From Hyperoplus lanceolatus (Eukaryota; Chordata; Actinopteri; Uranoscopiformes; Ammodytidae): 64,000 bases of DNA. Below are positions 36,627 to 63,868 of the stretch, one piece after another; the stretch's first letter is position 1; each line of letters starts with the position of its first letter. The notes beneath the pieces are model-generated. The model did not search any database and was not told where the DNA came from. It was given only the letters and a program-made list of their open reading frames with translations. The stretch lies in the NCBI GenBank assembly GCA_026929865.2, contig CM049396.1, positions 28,232,501 to 28,296,500 on the forward strand, written 5' to 3'. The translations under genes were made by a program, and so were the position numbers.

Positions 36627-39555
36627 CTTTTATTTTTGGTATCAACCAAAGGTCGTAAAGTAGTGTTGTGGCTTGTCAGCAGATGGAAGGTATTTGTGGA
36701 AAATAAAATCAGCTAGACCTTACAACAAATCCTTTTTACTAGTCCCACCTGTGCCTTGACACCAGCAGTTGACTTATTTTGGCCAAAGATAGCCAGCACC
36801 CCCCAACTCTACTCCCAAAGGACCCTTACTTGTCAGGTGGGTTATATGCCAGATGGCGGCAGGTATGTAACTATCGTGGCTTCATAGCAGTGGGACACAG
36901 TGTAGCCATAAGCATTGCCCACAAATGAATTAAATTAAGAAAAAGAACAAGACACAAACGACAAAGGGCTGCACACAGACATTGTTCTCTAAATACAAAA
37001 TGGTTTACTCTTGCCACGGATATTACACAGCAGTTAATCTCTGACACGGAAATGACCAATAAACTGATTATAGTGTGTAGCTCCAACCTCTTGGGACCCC
37101 TGGGACCGCTTGGTACCCCAAGAAAAAGGGTGACCAAAATAGGTAGGGTATACGATACGCTTATTTTGGTAGCCTTCCGAACTTTCAACAGTGAAAACGC
37201 AAATAATTGTGTGCCATACTGTACCAAAACGATCTGTACCGCTCAGTGGAAACAAGCTCATGATGTCCATTATCCATGGAACCTCTGGTAAGGCAGGGAA
37301 CACGATAACCCCCAAACTTGGGCCTGGAATTAACTCTATAGTTCCTTATGTTTGTTCTGATCAAACCCTGGAGGAGGCTTTTGATCCCATGAACACACCA
37401 TGACGCCCAAAGGCAGAGGAAAGGAGTGAGTGTGTAAGGAAGATTGTGTTCGACAGAAGGATTTGTATACATGTATAAATTGGCCTCTTGCCAATCATGC
37501 TGCATGTTGTCTTCTCACATTTTCTTGCGTTCTCTGCATCTGTCTTGCTTTGCTTCTCCCCCCTTCGTTGCTCACACGTTGCCCCTTGTAAGGCCACGCA
37601 TCAAGCCACTTAGCAGCCAGCCGGGTATTGACAGAAAATGCCCAAAAAACTGTCCCTGCTTCCTATTAGCCAGGAATCTCCACGCTCCTGCAAACACCCG
37701 TTAGCCATCCAGTCCCAATATGATGACTTGGCCGGGTTTCACGCCTCTCCATTTTATAGTTGATGAATAGCCACAGCAGATGGTTCCTTATCTTTGAAGA
37801 CTCCAGTAAGACGAGCGTGATGAATCGCTCCAGGCCTTACGCATCCATCCGCCCTCTCACCATCCCCACCGCCATCAGGTTACACCTCAGGCACCAAAAA
37901 AAAAGTTAAATGTGAACAATGTGTAGTTGACTCGTCAAGTACACCTATGCAGCTTCTGCTTTCACTTTACTTATAGCAGCCCCTCCAAAAAACTTTAGAC
38001 ACTTTCATTCCATTCCAGCTGTGTAAACAGCAATATGGTTGGTGTTAAAAACATCTATACAAAAGCAGAAAAAAAGAGGACAAGGGCTCATCTGGTGCAG
38101 TCATTATCCTCTTTACAATGCACTCTCATGACAGACTCACGTCCACTCGTCTCATCAGTCACAACTTCACACAGCGGCTCAGCGGAGAATGGGTGAGGGG
38201 TGAGCATGAGGAGCCGGAGCAGTTATGGTAGCAAGAGAAGTTAATGCTTTCCTTACAATGTGAATTCTTTGTAGGGCTCACTGTTTCTCAGATTATAAAT
38301 CAATCCATGCCCGGGGAAAAATATCCCTCACGATGGTGACATGGGAAATGTCCAAGCCCTCAAGGAAAGAAACCAGTTTATGAAAAAACTTAGCACACTT
38401 TGTGTGGCTCCGTGCCATGCATTCTTGGTATGACTTGATGGTGATATAATGAAAATGTGCATGCTCAGTTTAATACAAGTGTTAAAAAAAGAAGAAGCAA
38501 AACATGTTGTTCTGTGACACGGAAATTGGCATGAGCTGTTATTGCTTAATGCCAAACACTTTTGTGAAAAATAAATTCCTTGGCGTTTTCTATTGCATCA
38601 GTGAGACACTATCGGATTAACTATAATTTGAGAACAGTGGAAAAGAAAATGTCTATGAAAATATAGAAATGATATTCAAAATCCACTGATTGTAGATTAG
38701 ATTTGTTTCATCAAATGTGTTTGTCAGAGTAAAAATTCAAATTGTGCAAGAGGAAATCGGTTTATGTTAATTTGACTTAATTGTCGAGCTAAAATAATTC
38801 CAACACACTGTGAAGACCCTCTGTTGGAGCTTGGTGTATTTGTCAAAAGTTTAACCGGGTATTTGCCTGCTGCATTAGTAAAGTTATTTCCGTGCCAAGT
38901 CGTCCAGAGCAGGTCATCCACCAAATGAATCACATTAAAAGACATGTCAACAGTCCTCTCGAAATAGGCCCCCAAAGTACCTGGTCCACATACCCCTATC
39001 TGTTGAAGGAAACATCAAAATGCAGGCTTGAACATATTCAGGATCGCTGCAACTGTAGACATCCTGTCACATGTGTCATGTACTGAAGAAGGTATGTGCA
39101 GCAGAACGAAGCCAAAGACCAAACATAATAGGCAAGGTATACAAATACCGTATTCCTAAAAAAACTAATTAAAAAAATATGTTATAAATCCTGACATGTG
39201 ATTTAAAACAGCACCACACCATGTACTGCAGAGATATACAGTGTTATAATTATATAAACTACAACTAAACTTGTAGGAAATCTTGTCACACCAAATCTTC
39301 GTATCAAAGCAAGCATGAGCTAATAATCTCAAGAGCCTAAAAGAAAAGAATGCACATCAGTCAAATCCTGACAGACTGTTTTTGTTCTCATGTCTTCAAG
39401 TAACTTCAGGACAAACTATAGAAATTGTTTGTCCTCCATTACTCACTTTTCCATCACCAATGAAGTCATGTTTTAACAGGGTCTTATTTCTAAGATGTTT
39501 TTACTTGTGTCTATTGAGCCGGAGGCCTCACCTGTAGGCTACTGTGCTCACTCAC
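36627..39555. other. Intergenic stretch, probable old repeat material
   Basis: Sequence near 36795-36850 (ACCCTTACTTGT...TATATGCC.GATGGC) resembles 54240-54273 inside lrig1 intron 2, suggesting a shared old repeat. The part at 37080-37270 looks repeat-derived (GTACCAAAACGATCTGTACC, then CTCAGTGGAAAC), but no termini are seen. No gene is seen. Confidence 0.35.
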
Positions 39556-49620: not shown

Positions 49621-49778
<158 letters not shown>

Positions 49779-50030
49779 TCTGACACTCGGGTTATTATTT
49801 GACTAGTTTTTATGAGGCTCTGAAAACGAGCACATTAAAGGGCCTTTTGTCTTCCCATGATAGAGACTACAAAAGGCTCATCAGCCCTGACATCACTTCA
49901 CACTTTCGCTGAGCAAGGTTCACACACACACTGCAGGTTTATCTTTGATTAGAAATGGGGAAAGTTAATGATGATGTATGTCTGTATGTGTAAGGCACTG
50001 CTCTCTCTTCCTCCCTCCCTCCCTCCCTCT

Positions 50031-50032
<2 letters not shown>

Positions 50033-50109
<77 letters not shown>
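50033..50109. repeat. (CA)n microsatellite, intron 1
   Basis: A perfect CA run preceded by a TCCC-rich pyrimidine tract (50009-50032). Its opposite phase makes it complementary in RNA to the GT run at 49622-49776. Confidence 0.96.
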
Positions 50110-51676: not shown

Positions 51677-52026
51677 CTGGAATGCGTGCATACACACATA
51701 GAGGACCAGTTTTGTTTGTTGCCGTGGCCTTTAGCACCAGTACGGCAGGTTTGGCTCTCAAACGTGACATGTTTTTTTTATTGTTAGTCAACCCTTTGTT
51801 CTGTTATGCACTTTTTTTCATTTCAAGCTGTGAGCCTCATGCCTATGAATATGCACATATACACAGCCAGTTTCCTCCACTTTTAAATGCTAAAAAATCT
51901 CTTAAGAGATGGGATTTGCTCATTATGCAAGGTTCCCCACGTATAAATGGCTTGACCCCTTTCTGTGCCAAAAGCGGCTTGATACAAACTAGTGATGAAA
52001 GCTTCCAAATTCATCTTCTCTTAGCT

Positions 52027-52029
<3 letters not shown>

Positions 52030-52100
<71 letters not shown>
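52030..52100. repeat. (GT)n microsatellite, intron 1
   Basis: A perfect GT run. Confidence 0.96.
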
Positions 52101-52103
<3 letters not shown>

Positions 52104-52356
52104 TACATATGTGTTGGCTTAACATATGTATCTCCAGGCACAGACAGACGGCCCATAAGAAAGCGGTGTGATTTTTCACTTAGCTTCAGCATAACGAGGT
52201 AATTGCCTCCTGTTGCAGGGGACGACAATTTAGTGATTCTAGTCCACAATGGGAGGTGCCCCCGAAAAGAATCATAACGTACTAGACACTCACAAGCACA
52301 CCTCCCCTGTCAGACTTGTGCCTGGAGGGCAGACACATGCTCCGCTATTATCTCGT

Positions 52357-52484
<128 letters not shown>

Positions 52485-52623
52485 CTGCAGACGGAGAAAG
52501 CATTGGGGAGGGAGACTGTCATTATCTGCAATCAAGCAGGGAAGACAAGAAAGGGAAATCTGTCAAGAGAGTCGGAGATTGAGATTGATAGGAATAGAAA
52601 GTATTAAAATGTAGAGTGTGTAT

Positions 52624-52625
<2 letters not shown>

Positions 52626-52673
<48 letters not shown>
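52626..52673. repeat. (CA)n microsatellite, intron 1
   Basis: A perfect CA run. Confidence 0.95.
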
Positions 52674-52674
<1 letters not shown>

Positions 52675-52952
52675 GAGCGGTCTTTTAAGGCCATGAGGGA
52701 GAGGAATGTGTAGCATCAGGTAAAAGTGTCCCCAGTTCTCTGTGAACAAGCGTCCATCTCTGGTCCATGGGCCTGTGAAACATTCCTGGTCTGTCTCTCA
52801 CGTCTGGACCTCTGGGCTGGCAGGGCGGGAGGCTCTGAGCTGTGGGCCGCCTTTGTCTGGCCTGGCCTAACCCCACCACCACACAAACACAAACACCACT
52901 CTGCACTGCTCTCTGCCAGCAGACAGGCGGCATGCCAGCCAGGGAGTGTGTG

Positions 52953-52955
<3 letters not shown>

Positions 52956-53034
<79 letters not shown>
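52956..53034. repeat. (TG)n microsatellite, intron 1
   Basis: A perfect TG run, complementary in RNA to the two CA runs just upstream. Confidence 0.95.
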
Positions 53035-53035
<1 letters not shown>

Positions 53036-53084
53036 TGACAGAGATGGCACTTGTTTATGAGAGAAAATGTAATTTATTCATCCT

Positions 53085-53430
53085 CTTTTTTTTCTTTATT
53101 TGGATCCACACTAGCTTCCAGACAGAGTGGTCGCTATAGTCTACCTGGGGTCCACACACGCACACACACACACACACACACAAAGCAACAGCAATTAAAA
53201 CAAACAATAATAAAATCACATTATATGTGAATAAGTCCAACCACGCCATATTACACAAACAATAACTGACGGTAATCAACAAGCACACTTAGTGCAGATC
53301 TAAATGGGATTGTTTGAAAGTAACTGTGTTTGATGTGTCTGATTCTGATGGAGAGCCTATTCCAAGCAGAAAAAGCCCTATAGAGAACAGGTATCATCAT
53401 TACAATTCTTAGTAGACTTGGCATCACCAA
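53085..53430 (-). repeat. Probable LINE 3'-end fragment with internal CA run
   Basis: On the minus strand it ends GTGGATCCAAATAAAG followed by an A-rich tail, a poly(A)-signal-like terminus. The block TGGATCCACACTAGCTTCCA near 53100 resembles a common fish LINE 3' end recalled from memory. A CA run lies at 53157-53182. The phrase near 53358-53390 is shared loosely with the fragment at 21545-22000. Confidence 0.5.
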
Positions 53431-53986
53431 ATTGCTCATTTGTGGGTTAGGTAGGTACACAAACTAGCCACCTCCTCCTCCTCCTCCTCCCTCACTCTTT
53501 CTCTGACGATGGTAAGGCTATACAGTATATCGCTGGACAAATCACTCTAATAATCCCACAGTAGAAGTCAAGTGCCAGCTATTAAACACACGGTTAGGTT
53601 AGCCCTAAAGTGCAAATTGACTGCTGCAGATGAATAGCCTGTGGAGTTCATGTTTTGGAAAGTGAGCCCAGGAGACAGAGGCACTCTGTATCCATAGTAT
53701 CGATCCCAACCCTCTCCTCCAAAGGCCAGGCTGAATGGATGTACTGCACAGTTTTCAGTCACATACTTAATGTGGACGGATGAAGCTGTTTGTCAAATGA
53801 CGGAGATAATTGTTGTTATCAATTTTGAACCCCTTACTTGCACTATACTGAAAACAAAATACAATAGAGGTTATGAGAAATATGGTTGCGGTGCTGATAC
53901 TTTGATTGTTAATTGTTGTCCCCTCGTCCTGCTATGATGCCTTGTAACCTCTTTTTTCATTTACCTCCTCCTTCTCCTTCTTTCAG

Positions 53987-54058
53987 AAACCTCGGCCACA
54001 ACAAGCTGACCGCGATCAATTCTGAAGATTTTGACAACCTTCCCAACTTGAGAGAGCT
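53987..54058 (+). CDS. lrig1: lrig1 exon 2: one leucine-rich repeat
   Basis: A 72-nt exon, exactly one 24-residue leucine-rich repeat. Together with the two bases carried over from exon 1 it encodes L-NLGHNKLTAINSEDFDNLP followed by NLREL. This matches the first repeat of LRIG1 (LNLSYNKLSEID...FEDLPNLQE, recalled from the human protein). The asparagine ladder position (N of HNKL) and the leucine/isoleucine scaffold positions are intact. The acceptor is TTTCAG after a long CT-rich tract and the donor is GTAAGTA at 54059. Both boundaries are phase 2, so the exon is symmetric. Leucine-rich repeats form the extracellular solenoid that contacts partner receptors. Confidence 0.92.
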
Positions 54059-54078
54059 GTAAGTAGTCCCCGACAGAA

Positions 54079-54082
<4 letters not shown>

Positions 54083-54114
<32 letters not shown>
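54083..54114. repeat. (CA)16 next to the exon 2 donor
   Basis: A perfect CA run beginning 24 nt inside intron 2. Confidence 0.96.
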
Positions 54115-54117
<3 letters not shown>

Positions 54118-55119
54118 CCACACATACCCGTCGAGGCCACTTTTGCCTGGTTTTATCCACTAAGCAGCACAGTTTGGTCTGGCATGGTTCGGCAGGGCTA
54201 GGTAACCCGAGATCTGGCTTGCGTTTCCACTGCCTACAGCACCCTTATTGGTAGGCAGGGTATATGCCGAATGGCCTTGTTAGTCACTTTTGACTCTTAG
54301 TTTTTCATTTTGTAATTCACTAGCATCAATTGTGACACATTTTATCAATGACTCAACCTCTGACAAACGTCCACGGACACCACTCTTACTTCCTAGTAGC
54401 ATCCTCGCATGTGTTGTCTTGAACTTAGTCCAATTGAGAATAAAGTGGTGGTTTTCTATATTAAGCCCTCCCCTCCCAACACTCGATACTGTGGCCAACG
54501 CTGGCCTTGTAAATATTTTATATGGTGAGGAGAGGGCTTGGCTCTGTGTCACTCAGAGCCCAGTACACAGGACCCCATACACACACATACACACACGCAC
54601 ACACGGGCTAACTGGTGATACACACACTGGTGACATCTCTGGCGGGCTGGCCGGCTCAGTCATACGCTCCTCGACATCTGTTTTACGGCCCTGTTATTTT
54701 TGGTTTTTAAAAGGATGACTTGCTACTTGCTCTGCGGCCGACGTGACAAGTCCTGTTTTATAATCTTTTTGATTTATTGAAGGTTTCCATTTAAATCTAG
54801 CGCTGTGAAGGATAGCCCCCCTTCCCTGACGACACAGTTCAGCGAGCGTGTACTACACTTTGTTTGATAGCTAAAAAGAATGCAACATATAACTCACAAC
54901 AAGTGTAGCTTAATTTTGACACAGGGATCAAGATTTAAAATAAATATTTCTATTTTAATTTGTATTTAACAGTACGGTAGCTTAAACTTTAATTTTGAGT
55001 TTGGAAGTGTATACTGCTTGGAAAAAGTGCCTTTGCCTTCCATCTAACCTCATAACAACATATTAATCTAACTGTATTTGTTTGTGTCTTCCTCTTCCTC
55101 CTGTTCTCTGACGTACCAC

Positions 55120-55123
<4 letters not shown>

Positions 55124-55164
<41 letters not shown>
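55124..55164. repeat. (TG)n next to the exon 3 acceptor
   Basis: A perfect TG run lying where the branch point and pyrimidine tract would be expected. It ends 13 nt before exon 3. Confidence 0.96.
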
Positions 55165-55167
<3 letters not shown>

Positions 55168-55177
55168 TCACTTTCAG

Positions 55178-55252
55178 GCGGCTGGACCACAATGAGCTGA
55201 CCTCCATACCAGATTTAGGACAAGCTACTTCAAAGATTGTATCTCTCTACCT
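55178..55252 (+). CDS. lrig1: lrig1 exon 3: second leucine-rich repeat
   Basis: A 75-nt exon encoding RLDHNELTSIPDLGQATSKI followed by VSLYL, using the first base to complete the leucine codon begun in exon 2. It matches LRIG1 repeat 2 (NNNELTAVPSLGAASSHVVS recalled from the human protein) in length and in the Pro-x-Leu-Gly break, which distinguishes it from a plain 24-residue repeat. The acceptor is CTTTCAG with a weak pyrimidine tract because a TG run occupies the upstream position. The donor is GTGAGTAT at 55253. The boundary is again phase 2. Exon 4, expected to start near a His-Asn-Lys motif, was not found before the right edge of the window. Confidence 0.92.
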
Positions 55253-56964
55253 GTGAGTATACCAACCCCATTCATTTACTGCTGTACCATGGTCCCTGGA
55301 ATGATCTGGCACTCTGTTACTGTATTCTTAGGCCAGTGGCCTCTTTGAAATGCTCTTGAAATAGTCTCTTGACATCTATAGACGATGCTTATATGCCTGT
55401 GCTTGCTATGCTGCGTTAATGGGAAGTCAGCAATGAGTGTGTGACGCTCTTACACCATAAACTAGATCAAAAATCCCCTCCTTTCCACTTGAGTTCTGTT
55501 GGAATACATTTTGGAGCTCTTGTCTTTGGTGATTAATATGTGGTCATGATGTGACTGGTCTTATTAGCCGGCCATGTGGTCTTGTTCCACAGTGAACGAT
55601 GCTGGCTGCCTGGAGTGTCAGCTCGTGTAGAGTTCCAACTTGGTTTCTCCCAGTTATGAAAGTGCCGGGGGGGGGGATGCTGCCTGCGCTGGCATCTCTG
55701 GAGATTTACTGCCCTATTTGGGAAGGGCGTGTGTTTGCTTGTGTATGTCACAAGTGGGAGCCCGGTAGTCCATCAACAGTCTCATTTTTTTGACACCTTT
55801 CCAGAGAAAAATGGTGGCAGGAAAGTGATTGATGTTATGACTATGGTAATGCAGGTGAAGTTCAGGGATGTTTTACATAGCTGGACAATGGTACATTCCA
55901 GAAGGTTTACTTAAAGAAATGCTACTTGAAATAGACAGGTCTCATTATTTATTCAACAAGTTTTCAGTGTTGTCCCAGTACCATGTGTTAGCATGATGCT
56001 CATTAAGATATAAAATAAAGCTAAGCACATAAAACAAAGTCAATGGGTACAGCGTTCCACCCATATAATCCGTTGGGTGGAGTACTCTTTACTGCTAGTA
56101 CTGCTAAACATTCCCGTCACTCGGGGTATCTCTTTTCACACCTTGCTAACATGCCGGCCCAATGACTGGTGGTAAAGTACGCAACTGTGAGTTCCAGTTA
56201 ATATTGCTCATCGGCATATAGGTTTTCAGTGGTGAACTTTGTTGGAGTCACACACCTTCCGTCTCTGCCCCTGTGTGTCATCCGCCTGCCTCTAGGAAAC
56301 TGATCATGAGGCACTAATGTGGTCGGAACATATCTATAAGCTGTCAACTCGTGACTTCTGCTTGCTCATTTTGTAATGTTTCCAAAAGGTTTTTTTGAGT
56401 TGTTGATATCTTGTGGTTTTTCTTTTTTTCTAGTAGTCTGGATCTGTAGGGGTTAACCCAAAATTCATTTTTTGCTATAAAACATATTGGAGCAAGTTCA
56501 CCTTTTACATGCACAAGCTATGCAGTGTGGCAGGCAGGCCCCCTCCAAAATGATTGGGGGGGGGTGTCTTTATTTGGCCTGAGTTGAAGCCTGTTGCTAG
56601 GGGAAAAGCCTGCGGGGTCTGATGGGAGTAGAGGCCAGAGGGAGGGAGGGTGGGACCTTTTACAAAGCCACACAGCTGAAGCGAAGGCCCCGGCGAATGA
56701 AGCACTTGCAGCTGCAGCTGTCAGTCACATGGCTTACAGTAAAATGGGTGACAGTGAAGAGGGGAGGAAGGATGAGAGAAACAGGGTGGGAGGACGGGAC
56801 GCGGGGGATTGTGAACGTGTCAGATCAGAGTGACATCACCACAATGTCCACAGAGGAATGGTGGAGGAGGCAGGAGGAGGGTACGGACAAGCAAAGGAAG
56901 GGAAAACAAAGGGGAAGCGAGAGTTGAGCTCATACGCAGGGGTTCTTCCCAAAAGTACATCCAA

Positions 56965-56969
<5 letters not shown>

Positions 56970-57034
<65 letters not shown>
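56970..57034. repeat. (GT)n microsatellite, intron 3
   Basis: A perfect GT run. Confidence 0.95.
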
Positions 57035-57035
<1 letters not shown>

Positions 57036-57102
57036 CCCCTGCCATTGGTTGAGATAGTCTGGAATGTCGTCTGACTACAAGTTTGTGTGAGACAGTGGTT
57101 TA

Positions 57103-57149
57103 CACACACACAGACACACAGACACACACACACACACACACACACACAA
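57103..57149. repeat. (CA)n microsatellite, intron 3
   Basis: A CA run with GA interruptions, 69 bp beyond a GT run. The two could pair in RNA. Confidence 0.93.
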
Positions 57150-59294: not shown

Positions 59295-60055
59295 AAATTC
59301 AGCAGCGTTTACCTTCACTATGGACTGGAGACGGACAGTAAATATTGCACACTCTACTGTGTACGTTGCCTTTGCAGTTAGTCTGTCATACGCCCTGGAT
59401 TTTAAGGTACTGTGCTTTCATCCACGCTACGTTTTGGGATAACATGTTTAGAAGGGATAAACAAAAAAAAAAAAAAAAAAAAAGTGGCCCGGATCTTGTG
59501 TTACTCTGTGTGCTACTGCTTTCATTCATGTTATGTTTGGGCTAATTAGGGGGAACAAAAGAGAAGGGGAGGGGGACACATAGCTTTTCCATTACATGGA
59601 TGTGCCATATATATATTTATATATATATATATATATATTTTTTTTACACCTAATTATTACTTTATAATATTTTTGTCCCCTCAGCCCTGCTTTTGCCTTC
59701 ATGGCCTTTGTGTAAAGCTTGTTTATATATTATTACTGGGAGCCTTCTTAGCTAGAAGCAAGAAGATGATGTTCTACCAGAAGTTTTTGGAAATAGTGTT
59801 ATGCCTGCAGCTTGCCTCAGGGAGAGGAACAAGTATAGGCTTAGTGTTAGTTATGTCTGTGTCTATGTCTGGGGTATGGGACAGGGTTATGGGATGGTAC
59901 ACCACTAGAATTTATTTTTTATTTTTTATATTTTTTTATTTCTTTATCTCACTCTTTCTTAATGAGGTTATCCATGGAGCTGTACACATTTTTGTTGTGA
60001 CTATTTATTTGCTTTACAGTTATTATAACAATTTTACCCTTTTTCTGATTTAAAC
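59295..60055 (+). other. L1 inter-ORF spacer
   Basis: A 761-bp spacer, long for an L1. It contains an internal A run (about 59462-59482) and an AT microsatellite (about 59607-59640). The open frame at about 59673-60053 is hydrophobic low-complexity sequence with no recognisable domain and is not called. Confidence 0.7.
59607..59640. repeat. (AT)n tract within the L1 spacer
   Basis: ATATATAT with TTT interruptions. Confidence 0.9.
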
Positions 60056-63000
60056 ATGGAACAAAGAACTAATGTAAGAAAGGCTGATGTAAGATTTATT
60101 AGCTGGAACGTAAAAGGCTTAAATGGGCCTGTAAAAAGAGCTAGAATATTCAATCACCTTAAATATTTAAAATGTGAAATTGCATTTCTTCAAGAAACTC
60201 ATTTGTTGTTGAAAGATCAAATTAGACTCAGGAAAGCTTGGGTGGGACATGTGTTCCACTCAAGTTTCGATTCCAAAACACGTGGGACCGCTATATTGAT
60301 ACATAAAAAAATCCAGTTCAGTGCTACCACTGTTATTTCTGACCCACAGGGGCGCTTTGTCATGGTCTCTGGGCTACTTTTCCACAAGCCTGTCGTTTTG
60401 GTTAATATATATGCCCCAAACTGGGATGATGATAAATTCATGGGTAAAGTTTTCTCATTAATACCAGACATAAACTCACAACAATTCATTTTAGGGGGTG
60501 ATCTGAATTGCACAATTAACCCAATATTGGACCGCTCTAATCCTAAATCTACAGATCCTTCAAAAATGGCCAAATCTTTATCTTTTCTTATGGATCAAAT
60601 AGGAGGTGTTGACCCCTGGCGCTCTCTTTCTCCACTTGGTCAATCCTACTCCTTCTTTTCCCCGGTTCACCACTCATACAGCAGAATAGACTACTTTTTT
60701 ATTGATAGAAACCTTCTTCCCTTTGTCACAAAAGCTGATTATTCAACCATAGTTGAATCTGATCACGCCCCTGTTTTATTAGATCTTGTGTTTCCTCCTA
60801 ACAATTCGGAACGTCCTCCTTGGAAATTAGACAAAACCTTACTGGCTGATAGTTCATTCTGTGATTTGATAAACAAAGAAATTGACAACTTTATAGTTTC
60901 CAACAAAAAAGATGACATCTCCTCCTCATTGCTTTGGGAGACACTGAAGGTTGTGATCAGAGGTGAGATTATATCATATTCAGCAAGAATCAATAAAATG
61001 CGTAGACTTGAACAAGACCAGCTTATTAAATCAATTAGCACAGTAGACTCTCAGTACTCTTCGTCTCCATCCCCTGAACTCTATAAAAAAAAGCTTGACC
61101 TTCAAACTCAATACAACCTGTTGTCAACCGGTAAAACAGAAAAAATGTTGTTAAAATCACGTGGATATGCTTATGAGCATGGAGAAAAAGCTGGCCGCCT
61201 TCTAGCACACCAACTTAAGGCCCAATCTGTTTCTCAACAAATCTCACAAATAAAGAAACCAAATGGGGATTTAACTACTGACCCGGGAGAAATTAATGAA
61301 ACATTTACCTCATTTTATTCTAACCTGTATACATCAGAGGCGACCAATGATAGAACTGATATGGAACATTTCTTTTGCAATCTTGAAGCTCCTTCCATAA
61401 AGGTAACGGATAAGACAAAGACCGAACTCCCATTACAACTGTCTGAAATTATTAACGCAATAATGGCAATGCAAAGTGGTAAGACACCTGGCCCCGACGG
61501 CTACCCAATAGAATTTTTTAAAACTTTTTCTAAGAAACTATCCCCAATTCTACTTGAAATGTTTATAGAGTCTATGTCCCGTGGGTCATTACCACAAACT
61601 CTCACTGAGGCATCGATTATTCTCCTGCTTAAGCCAGGTAAAGAGAATACAGAATGTGGCTCATATCGACCCATTTCCCTCCTAAACAGTGATGTGAAGA
61701 TCCTAGCTAAAGCGCTTGCCCTACGCCTAGAAACCACAATGACTGATGTGATCTCTGCTGACCAAACCGGTTTCATTCTGGGTCGACACTCATTTACAAA
61801 TATCCGACGGCTTTTGAATATTATTCACTCCCCTGCGTCCAGTGAGGTACCTGAGGTGGTCATCTCACTGGACGCAGAGAAAGCTTTTGACAGGGTTGAG
61901 TGGGAATATTTATTCACGTGTTTAAAGAAATTTGGGTATGGTCCAAATTTTATTTCATGGATTAAACTTCTTTACAGCTCACCCAAGGCCTCGGTGGTTA
62001 CAAACGGCAGGCAATCACAGTACTTCACTCTGTCGAGAGCGACCCGTCAGGGATGTCCAATTAGTCCACTGTTATTTGCCTTGGCCATAGAGCCCTTATC
62101 CATCGCACTCAAATCATTGCCATCTATAAGTGGAATTTTCAGAGGAGGAGATGAGCATAGACTAAGTTTATATGCCGATGATTTATTATTATTTGTTTCG
62201 GACCCTATTCTTAGTGTACCTCATATCATCCATGCTCTGTTAAGATTTGGTAAATTTTCCGGGTATAAACTGAACTTTAGTAAAAGTGAATGCTACCCTG
62301 TTAACAACTTGGCTCTTCAAATCCAGGATAATGTTTTACCGTTTAAAATGTCTAGAAACGGTTTTAAATATTTGGGCATTAACATCACAAGAGATATGAA
62401 AAACCTCTACCAGGAAAATTTTGCTCCTCTACTTGATAAAGTCAAACTAGATCTAAAGAAATGGAGAACACTCCACTTGTCCTTAGCAGGTAAAGTGAAT
62501 TGCATCAAGATGAGTGTGCTCCCAAAATTCCTCTACTTGTTTCAATGTATCCCACTTTACCTTCCTAGGTCTTTCTTTAAATGTATTGATAGCGCTTTTA
62601 TTTCTTTTATTTGGAATGGCAAGAACCCTAGGGTACGTTTAGAGCTTCTACAGAGGCCTAAATTACAGGGAGGCCTAGCTCTTCCTAATCTTTTCTACTA
62701 CTACTGGGCTGCAAATGTTCAAAAAATAATGTTTTGGCTTCATACTCCGGATACAGACTGGTGCCAGTATGAAGCTACATCATGCATCTCAACGTCTCTC
62801 ACGGCTCTGGTCACTTCCAGTCTTCCCGTTTCTACTACCCAGTTCACAAACAACCCAATTGTCATCAATACTTTGAAGATCTGGTTTCAAATGAGACGGT
62901 TCTTTGGTTTCAAACAAACTCTTAGCTTAAGCCCTATATGCAACAACCATCTTTTCCCCCCAGCTAAATTAGATGCTACATTCTCTTTTTGGCGGAGACA

Positions 63001-63868
63001 AGGCATTTCTAAATTTAAAGATATGTACATAAATTGTGTATTTGCCAGCTTTAATGACTTATCACAAAAATTTGGCCTTCCTCGATCTAGCCTGTTTCGA
63101 TATTTTCAAGTACGCCACTTCCTTATGAGCCATGACCCCAACTTTCCAAATGTATCTTCAGTGTCAGGCTTAGATGATCTGCTAGAATCCCCATTCAATT
63201 CGAAAAGGCTAATTTCTAGAATACATGATTGTATAGCTTCTCTTAAAACCATAACCATCGCGAAGATAAGGGCGGACTGGGCGGATGAATTGGGGGAAGC
63301 CATGGAAGATGACATGTGGAACTGTGCTTTACTAAGAGTGAATGACAGCACTTCTTGTGCAAAATTAAGTATAATACAATTTAAAGTTTTACACCGGACT
63401 CACTTTTCCAAAGCAAGATTAGCTAAAATATATCCTGATTCTGATGCTAGTTGTAACAGATGTCATCACACCCCTGCCAATTTAACCCATATGTTCTGGT
63501 CATGCCCTGCTCTGGTCACTTACTGGTCTATGATTTTTAAAACATTATCTGAGGCGCTCAATACTGATTTCCAACCAAATGCAGCAGCAGCTATATTTGG
63601 TATCACAGATCGTAGACATTCTATAGTAAGAAAAAGTTATAAAAACATATTGGCCTTTGTGACTCTGCTTGCACGCAGAAGAATATTATTACATTGGAAA
63701 TCAAAAAACCCTCCCAAAGCGTCTTTGTGGATGTGTGACCTGATGCACTTTATACAATTAGAGAAAATTAAATACTCGCTTAGGGGGTCAAGGGACAAAT
63801 TCTACTCCACCTGGGATCCGGTTTTGAAATACATAGGGAAACTCAAAACTATACCTGATACCCCATAG
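60056..63868 (+). CDS. L1 ORF2 protein: APE endonuclease, reverse transcriptase, zinc knuckle
   Basis: An intact 1270-residue frame from ATG 60056 to TAG 63866-63868. The endonuclease covers residues about 10-240 with the expected active-site residues: N18 (SWNVKGLNG), E47 (LQETH), D149 and N151 (GGDLN), and S235-D236-H237 (SDHAP). The reverse transcriptase is about 460-780: GKTPGPDGYPIEFF, GSYRPISLLNSDVKILAKAL, ISLDAEKAFDRVEW (D606), ATRQGCPISPLLFALAIEPL, and the catalytic Tyr-Ala-Asp-Asp at 706-709. FKYLGINITRD follows. A C-terminal zinc knuckle has C1133, C1136, H1145 and C1150. In the family this enzyme nicks target DNA and copies its own RNA in place. Every key residue checked is present, which supports a potentially active copy. 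Confidence 0.95.
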   Translation: MEQRTNVRKADVRFISWNVKGLNGPVKRARIFNHLKYLKCEIAFLQETHLLLKDQIRLRKAWVGHVFHSSFDSKTRGTAILIHKKIQFSATTVISDPQGRFVMVSGLLFHKPVVLVNIYAPNWDDDKFMGKVFSLIPDINSQQFILGGDLNCTINPILDRSNPKSTDPSKMAKSLSFLMDQIGGVDPWRSLSPLGQSYSFFSPVHHSYSRIDYFFIDRNLLPFVTKADYSTIVESDHAPVLLDLVFPPNNSERPPWKLDKTLLADSSFCDLINKEIDNFIVSNKKDDISSSLLWETLKVVIRGEIISYSARINKMRRLEQDQLIKSISTVDSQYSSSPSPELYKKKLDLQTQYNLLSTGKTEKMLLKSRGYAYEHGEKAGRLLAHQLKAQSVSQQISQIKKPNGDLTTDPGEINETFTSFYSNLYTSEATNDRTDMEHFFCNLEAPSIKVTDKTKTELPLQLSEIINAIMAMQSGKTPGPDGYPIEFFKTFSKKLSPILLEMFIESMSRGSLPQTLTEASIILLLKPGKENTECGSYRPISLLNSDVKILAKALALRLETTMTDVISADQTGFILGRHSFTNIRRLLNIIHSPASSEVPEVVISLDAEKAFDRVEWEYLFTCLKKFGYGPNFISWIKLLYSSPKASVVTNGRQSQYFTLSRATRQGCPISPLLFALAIEPLSIALKSLPSISGIFRGGDEHRLSLYADDLLLFVSDPILSVPHIIHALLRFGKFSGYKLNFSKSECYPVNNLALQIQDNVLPFKMSRNGFKYLGINITRDMKNLYQENFAPLLDKVKLDLKKWRTLHLSLAGKVNCIKMSVLPKFLYLFQCIPLYLPRSFFKCIDSAFISFIWNGKNPRVRLELLQRPKLQGGLALPNLFYYYWAANVQKIMFWLHTPDTDWCQYEATSCISTSLTALVTSSLPVSTTQFTNNPIVINTLKIWFQMRRFFGFKQTLSLSPICNNHLFPPAKLDATFSFWRRQGISKFKDMYINCVFASFNDLSQKFGLPRSSLFRYFQVRHFLMSHDPNFPNVSSVSGLDDLLESPFNSKRLISRIHDCIASLKTITIAKIRADWADELGEAMEDDMWNCALLRVNDSTSCAKLSIIQFKVLHRTHFSKARLAKIYPDSDASCNRCHHTPANLTHMFWSCPALVTYWSMIFKTLSEALNTDFQPNAAAAIFGITDRRHSIVRKSYKNILAFVTLLARRRILLHWKSKNPPKASLWMCDLMHFIQLEKIKYSLRGSRDKFYSTWDPVLKYIGKLKTIPDTP

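What the first reader, a model, noticed from the sequence alone, without database searches (positions are those of the whole stretch)
54059..55177. Complementary CA and TG repeats flank both splice sites of lrig1 intron 2
(CA)16 begins 24 nt after the exon 2 donor, and a 41-nt TG run ends 13 nt before exon 3. In the pre-mRNA these are exact complements and could form a ~32-bp helix that loops out almost the whole intron and brings the splice sites together. The exon 3 acceptor has a weak pyrimidine tract because the TG run sits there, while the exon 2 acceptor has a long CT tract. I recall published work on zebrafish introns in which AC/GU pairing reduced dependence on U2AF2. This intron would be a natural case.
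Basis: partly seen in the sequence, partly recalled or inferred. Interest (0 to 1): 0.8.

Follow-up and report, generated by a model that had tools for sequence, protein, structure and literature searches.

The report
Paired CA/TG repeats bracketing lrig1 intron
One intron of what looks like a fish lrig1 gene carries complementary CA and TG repeats just inside its two ends that could zip together in the RNA, an arrangement already described for zebrafish introns, so this is a candidate example rather than a new phenomenon.

Summary
Intron 2 is 54059-55177 (1119 nt); (CA)16 starts 24 nt inside the donor and a 41-nt TG run ends 13 nt before exon 3. The joined 49 residues align without gaps to LRIG1 in PDB 4u7l. 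A 32-bp helix is predicted: mean pairing probability of the CA run with the TG run is 0.96-0.99, ideal duplex -62.8 kcal/mol; it survives in 4 of 5 longer contexts.

The proposed mechanism is a published class of fish introns with pairing AC and GU repeats (Lin et al. 2016, seen only through papers citing it).

Genome-wide tests are inconclusive: CA after strong donors 43 collapsed (50 raw) against 38.8 expected; TG 526 and CA 533 before acceptor-like words. A backwards-read control gives a weak hint towards the class at acceptors (P 0.04). U2AF2 independence, conservation and splicing could not be tested.

Verdict: structurally competent candidate member of a known kind; function unproven; neutral microsatellite coincidence is a serious rival.

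The parts
53987..54058 (+). lrig1 exon 2 (72 nt, LRR-coding)
54059..55177 (+). lrig1 intron 2 (1119 nt, GTAAGTAG...TTTCAG)
54083..54114 (+). (CA)16 run, 5' arm of the putative bridging helix
55124..55164 (+). (TG)20T run, 3' arm of the putative bridging helix; long enough for a pUG quadruplex fold as an alternative
   Evidence: (GU)11.5 minimum from PMC12962679 passages
55085..55109 (+). pyrimidine tract (23 of 25 C/T) upstream of the TG run, candidate U2AF2 site
55068..55072 (+). candidate branch site CTAAC, A at 55071 (-107)
55108..55112 (+). candidate branch site CTGAC, A at 55111 (-67)
55119..55123 (+). candidate branch site CTTAC, A at 55122 (-56), directly upstream of the TG run
55028..55175 (+). 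AG-free zone upstream of the exon 3 acceptor (148 nt)
55178..55252 (+). lrig1 exon 3 (75 nt, in frame, so skipping would remove 25 residues)

Best explanation
Intron 2 is a structurally competent example of a known fish arrangement: an AC repeat after the 5' splice site and a complementary GU repeat before the 3' splice site can pair in the pre-mRNA. That leaves only 24 + 13 nt outside a 32-bp helix and loops out 1009 nt, favouring joining of exon 2 to exon 3. Shown: the repeats, their positions, exact complementarity, and dominance of the helix in computed protein-free folds. Inferred: that it forms in cells and helps splicing. I think its role here is auxiliary, not a replacement for U2AF2. 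The TG run sits between ordinary-looking branch-site and pyrimidine-tract signals and the AG, so a helix would mainly fold up the long gap before the AG and bring the acceptor near the donor, with U2AF2 still able to load on the upstream tract.
For: Coordinates and sequence. Gapless match of the joined exons to LRIG1. Mean pairing probability of CA-run bases with the TG run 0.988 for the intron alone and 0.963 with both exons; ideal duplex -62.8 kcal/mol. MFE keeps the helix in 4 of 5 longer contexts. Of the 6 introns mapped (2-7), only intron 2 has a CA/TG run of 10 nt or more within 100 nt of a splice site. Per-intron chance 5.5e-6 to 1.5e-4 under independence. Weak genome-wide hint: against the backwards-read control, TG before acceptor-like words is 2.45-fold and CA 1.95-fold (odds ratio 1.25, P 0.04); at donors the matching odds ratio is 1.31-1.52 (P 0.30-0.10). 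The class is described for fish in passages of PMC6093180, PMC12962679, PMC9198270 and PMC9508853; the last also describes RNA structure bringing branch point and 3'ss together.
Against: No clear excess of CA after strong donors against a density-based expectation: 43 sites collapsed, 38.8 expected, P 0.27; 50 raw, P 0.046; the CA share is 0.398 (raw 0.435) where 0.473 is expected, P 0.12 (raw 0.46). TG share before acceptor-like words 0.497 against 0.473, P 0.12. In 1 of 5 contexts (52000-55300) the TG run pairs with a 115-nt CA run of intron 1, which would loop out exon 2. In the exon-intron-exon fold the donor bases are themselves partly paired (unpaired probability 0.06-0.79). The three nearest branch-site consensuses lie on the loop side of the helix, away from the splice sites at its base. 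No RNA data and no orthologues were available.
Confidence: 0.45

Rival explanations
1. Neutral coincidence: two independently expanding microsatellites in a repeat-rich genome happen to sit at opposite ends of the intron. The TG run grew between the ancestral branch site and the AG and was tolerated because it contains no AG. Splicing uses the upstream branch site and pyrimidine tract in the ordinary U2AF2-dependent, distant-branch-point way; the helix may form but does not matter.
For: Repeat-rich genome and a window about twice as dense as 20 samples of its contig. A few such introns expected by chance per genome. Sliding an intron-sized frame gives as many swapped TG..CA as CA..TG placements for runs of 20 nt or more (14 and 14). 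No significant orientation bias against run density at donors or acceptor-like words. The 23/25 pyrimidine tract, CTGAC, CTTAC and CTAAC sites and 148-nt AG-free zone match the distant-branch-point pattern described in PMC1431707 (passages). Subtracting the 41-nt run puts the CTGAC site 26 nt from the exon.
Against: Per intron, the joint placement in the pairing orientation is improbable. A published fish class has this layout. The backwards-read control hints at a TG preference before acceptor-like words (P 0.04). The genome tests have limited power.
Confidence: 0.37
2. Protein-bound regulation: the UG run recruits TDP-43 or CELF-type proteins (CELF from recall) and the CA run hnRNP L, modulating inclusion of the in-frame exon 3, as the (TG)n repeat does at CFTR exon 9. 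A pUG quadruplex in the UG run could act similarly.
For: TG run adjoining a short T-rich stretch directly before the AG. Exon 3 is 75 nt and in frame. TARDBP-GT and HNRNP-L-AC associations and the CFTR (TG)n case are mentioned in PMC13174678 passages. (GU)11.5 is the shortest pUG fold and the run here is longer (PMC12962679 passages).
Against: CA-rich complements interfere with pUG folding (PMC12962679 passages), and the CA run here is such a complement. No binding or isoform data for this gene or species.
Confidence: 0.15

Closest known systems
AC/GU-repeat bridged introns of zebrafish, Lin et al. 2016 Genome Res 26:12-23 (not held; known here from citing papers and recall)
   Same: AC run after the 5' splice site and complementary GU run before the 3' splice site, at opposite ends of one intron in what appears to be a fish gene
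   Different: U2AF2 independence untested here; a good pyrimidine tract and branch-site consensuses remain upstream; this genome gives no clear class-wide excess, only a weak hint
CFTR exon 9 with its upstream (TG)n repeat and TDP-43 (partly recalled; PMC13174678 passages)
   Same: long TG run directly before a 3' splice site of an in-frame exon
   Different: a complementary CA run lies at the other end of the intron here; skipping not observed or tested
Distant-branch-point exons with AG exclusion zones (Gooding et al. 2006, PMC1431707, passages)
   Same: 148-nt AG-free zone, branch-site consensus and pyrimidine tract well upstream of the AG
   Different: the cases described there lie 100-400 nt upstream, here -56 to -107; the zone is partly made by a microsatellite
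Introns whose RNA folds between branch point and 3'ss (fission and budding yeast; PMC9508853, passages)
   Same: helix involving sequence between branch site and AG
   Different: here the partner strand is at the far end of the intron, not local

Membership tests
AC/GU-repeat bridged introns | AC repeat just downstream of the 5' splice site | tested here: met
   (CA)16 starts 24 nt after the exon
[quoted passage not shown]
   41-nt run ends 13 nt before exon 3
AC/GU-repeat bridged introns | the two runs pair into a stable bridging helix | tested here: inconclusive
   predicted: P 0.96-0.99, -62.8 kcal/mol, 4 of 5 longer contexts; no in-cell data
AC/GU-repeat bridged introns | splicing does not require U2AF2 | not testable with these tools
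   needs U2AF2 depletion; the sequence retains a 23/25 pyrimidine tract
AC/GU-repeat bridged introns | class-wide enrichment of the repeats at splice sites in the host genome | tested here: inconclusive
   donor+CA 43 (50 raw) vs 38.8 expected; acceptor-like TG 526 vs CA 533; backwards-read control odds ratio 1.25, P 0.04 at acceptors, 1.31-1.52, P 0.30-0.10 at donors
AC/GU-repeat bridged introns | presence in orthologous introns of other fish | not testable with these tools
   only the window's own genome is held; it has no relatives here
Distant-branch-point exon | long AG-free zone upstream of the acceptor with branch site and pyrimidine tract in it | tested here: met
   148-nt zone; tract 55085-55109; six yUnAy sites within the zone, nearest three at -56, -67, -107
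Distant-branch-point exon | branch point mapped experimentally far upstream | not testable with these tools
   needs lariat sequencing
TG-run/TDP-43 regulated exon (CFTR exon 9 type) | TG run directly upstream of the acceptor | tested here: met
TG-run/TDP-43 regulated exon (CFTR exon 9 type) | TDP-43 binding and repeat-length-dependent skipping | not testable with these tools
   no RNA data

The most novel reading that the evidence does not exclude
The helix works as a length compensator: growth of the TG run pushed the branch point from a normal distance of about 26 nt to 67 nt from the exon, and a matching CA run near the donor lets the expanded stretch be folded away, so that both repeats must stay complementary and change length together while the branch point stays on the loop side. 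This would be a distinct geometry in which a donor-proximal strand folds the branch-point-to-AG gap.
Probability: 0.08. Interest if true: 0.5.

Novelty: new member of a known kind. Interest (0 to 1): 0.3.

Why it matters
If functional, it adds a clear candidate in a receptor-regulator gene to the fish introns spliced with the help of repeat pairing, and suggests that such introns can keep a usable U2AF2 signal. It also shows how microsatellites, which change length quickly, can bear on splicing. As it stands it is a test case, not a new principle.

Tried and rejected
Rejected: that the exon 3 acceptor lacks any pyrimidine tract. Not established: that the case belongs to an enriched class in this genome. 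The first pattern, CAGGTRAGT N5-35 (CA)10, counted one run many times on the reverse strand, so only patterns anchored at the run edge were used for statistics. Those patterns do not match the lrig1 intron itself (its donor is preceded by GCT, and its TG run is followed by T), and each sees only runs of one edge type. Of the 50 raw donor+CA hits, 7 lie in one tandem array on C4 and 2 are the same donor on C6; collapsing gives 43, and both numbers are reported. The 65 donor+TG hits were not collapsed although three (one on C7, two on C18) have the same letters; several have TG-rich spacers (donor-like GTGAGT inside imperfect TG repeats), so 65 is probably inflated. The backwards-read controls were not collapsed either. 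The acceptor-like word YYTNCAGG is expected to be mostly not real splice sites, so that test is diluted. Comparison with lrig paralogues of the same genome was not obtained: the protein search did not complete. Papers seen only as passages and judged not to bear further on the case: PMC9977717, PMC7404189, PMC5766209, PMC10809524. The original Lin et al. paper is not held.

Full report
What is there. Exon 2 (53987-54058, 72 nt) and exon 3 (55178-55252, 75 nt) flank a 1119-nt intron with GTAAGTAG and TTTCAG ends. The joined translation aligns over all 49 residues without gaps to LRIG1 in PDB 4u7l, with the best single-domain score among the three alignments shown; by whole-sequence E-value a bacterial LRR protein with many weak repeats ranks first. 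Pfam gives LRR families. LRIG2 and LRIG3 were not compared. Exons 4-8, placed by eye, follow at 67724-72674 in window coordinates, each a multiple of three.

The repeats. (CA)16 is at 54083-54114 and (TG)20T at 55124-55164, with 24 and 13 nt to the splice sites. Of 6 introns examined (2-7), only intron 2 has a CA/TG run of 10 nt or more within 100 nt of a splice site. Intron 1 was not measured because its start is unknown.

Folding. CA-run bases pair with the TG run with mean probability 0.988 in the isolated intron and 0.963 in exon2-intron-exon3; for TG-run bases, of which 9 have no CA partner, the values are 0.771 and 0.751; the ideal duplex is -62.8 kcal/mol. In the exon-intron-exon fold the donor and acceptor bases are themselves partly paired. 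In minimum-energy folds of five longer contexts, four keep the helix. In 52000-55300 the TG run pairs with the 115-nt CA run of intron 1 at about 52.4 kb, which would loop out exon 2. The window upstream of exon 2 and intron 3 hold many other CA and TG runs, so pairing specificity would depend on proximity and timing. These are protein-free computations.

Branch point and pyrimidine tract. The TG run has no A, so no branch-point A can lie at -14 to -54. Nine yUnAy sites occur in the last 228 nt; the nearest three are CTTAC (-56), CTGAC (-67) and CTAAC (-107), and a 4-of-5 match, GTCAC, is at -8. A tract with 23 of 25 pyrimidines lies at 55085-55109. The acceptor has a 148-nt AG-free zone. PMC9508853 gives human branch-point-to-3'ss spacing as 29.3 +/- 11.9 nt (passages), and PMC1431707 describes distant branch points marked by AG-free zones (passages). 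Without the 41-nt run the CTGAC site would be 26 nt from the exon, so the run plausibly expanded between an ordinary branch site and its AG (inference). If the helix forms, these branch sites are on the loop side and the splice sites at the base, so the helix brings the acceptor, not the branch point, to the donor (inference from the coordinates).

Chance. Twenty 10-kb samples of C2 (190 kb without N) gave 21 CA and 20 TG runs of 20 nt or more; the window has 15 and 11 in 64 kb. Genome-wide there are 89,795 B(CA)10 and 100,052 (CA)10D sites on both strands. With 111 runs per Mb (twice the first density) the joint placement has a per-intron chance of 5.5e-6 to 4.4e-5, about 1-9 per 200,000 introns, a number I assumed; with the window's density 1.8e-5 to 1.5e-4. 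Sliding an 1119-nt frame over the window gives 14 CA..TG and 14 swapped placements for runs of 20 nt or more, 14 and 0 for 24 nt or more.

Genome context. The strong-donor word MAGGTRAGT occurs 22,464 times on both strands, less than the word read backwards at 37,001; what fraction are real donors is unknown. CA runs starting 5-35 nt beyond the word: 50 raw, 43 collapsed, 38.8 expected. TG runs: 65, 43.2 expected, probably inflated by TG-like spacers. The CA share is 0.398 collapsed (0.435 raw) where run density predicts 0.473, P 0.12 (0.46). Before YYTNCAGG, TG and CA runs occur 526 and 533 times; the TG share of 0.497 against 0.473 has P 0.12. The backwards-read controls were 103 (TG) and 52 (CA) at donors, 215 (TG) and 273 (CA) at acceptors. 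Against them the class-predicted direction is mildly favoured: odds ratio 1.25, P 0.04 at acceptors, and 1.31 (raw 1.52), P 0.30 (0.10) at donors. So the two ways of judging differ: nothing significant for the orientation share against run density, a weak uncorrected hint against the backwards control. The 95% upper limit on the donor CA excess is about 19 sites, so a small class is not excluded. Neither test looks at both ends of one intron.

Literature. PMC12962679 states that fish introns hold thousands of pUG sequences accompanied by complementary CA repeats that bring intron ends together and replace U2AF2 (passages). PMC6093180 says about 10% of all zebrafish introns (passages); I recall the original abstract as 10% of genes and could not check, since the paper is not held. 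PMC9198270 and PMC9508853 cite it likewise (passages). None of my paper searches named lrig1, so I make no claim about whether this intron is in print.

Verdict. The sequence features of the bridged-intron class are met; its functional hallmark, U2AF2 independence, is untested, and the intron retains an ordinary-looking U2AF2 signal upstream. I favour an auxiliary bridging helix (0.45) over neutral coincidence (0.37) and protein-mediated regulation (0.15). The repeats are real and the idea is testable, but the kind is already known.

Noticed in passing
window 60029-63865: An uninterrupted frame of 1279 codons on the + strand with endonuclease-like text near its start, looking like a LINE retrotransposon ORF2, inside lrig1 intron 3. 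Identification is by eye only.
   Followed up: no
window 17065-17386, 49622-50109, 52030-53182, 56969-57148: Several neighbouring TG and CA runs in opposite orientation, 88-283 nt apart, able to form local hairpins upstream of exon 2 and in intron 3; they are competitors for the intron 2 repeats.
   Followed up: partly
lrig1 intron 7, acceptor of exon 8 at 72531 (window coordinates, in locus L002): The acceptor pyrimidine tract is itself a long (CT)n microsatellite, with a 177-nt AG-free zone.
   Followed up: no
G000:C4:2611810-2612413: Tandem array whose unit contains CAGGTGAGTGGAC followed by a long CA run, seen 7 times in about 600 bases.
   Followed up: no
G000, whole genome: The strong-donor word MAGGTRAGT is rarer (22,464) than the same word read backwards (37,001), and TG runs shortly after it exceed the density-based expectation (65 vs 43.2), probably in part because the word arises inside imperfect TG repeats.
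   Followed up: no
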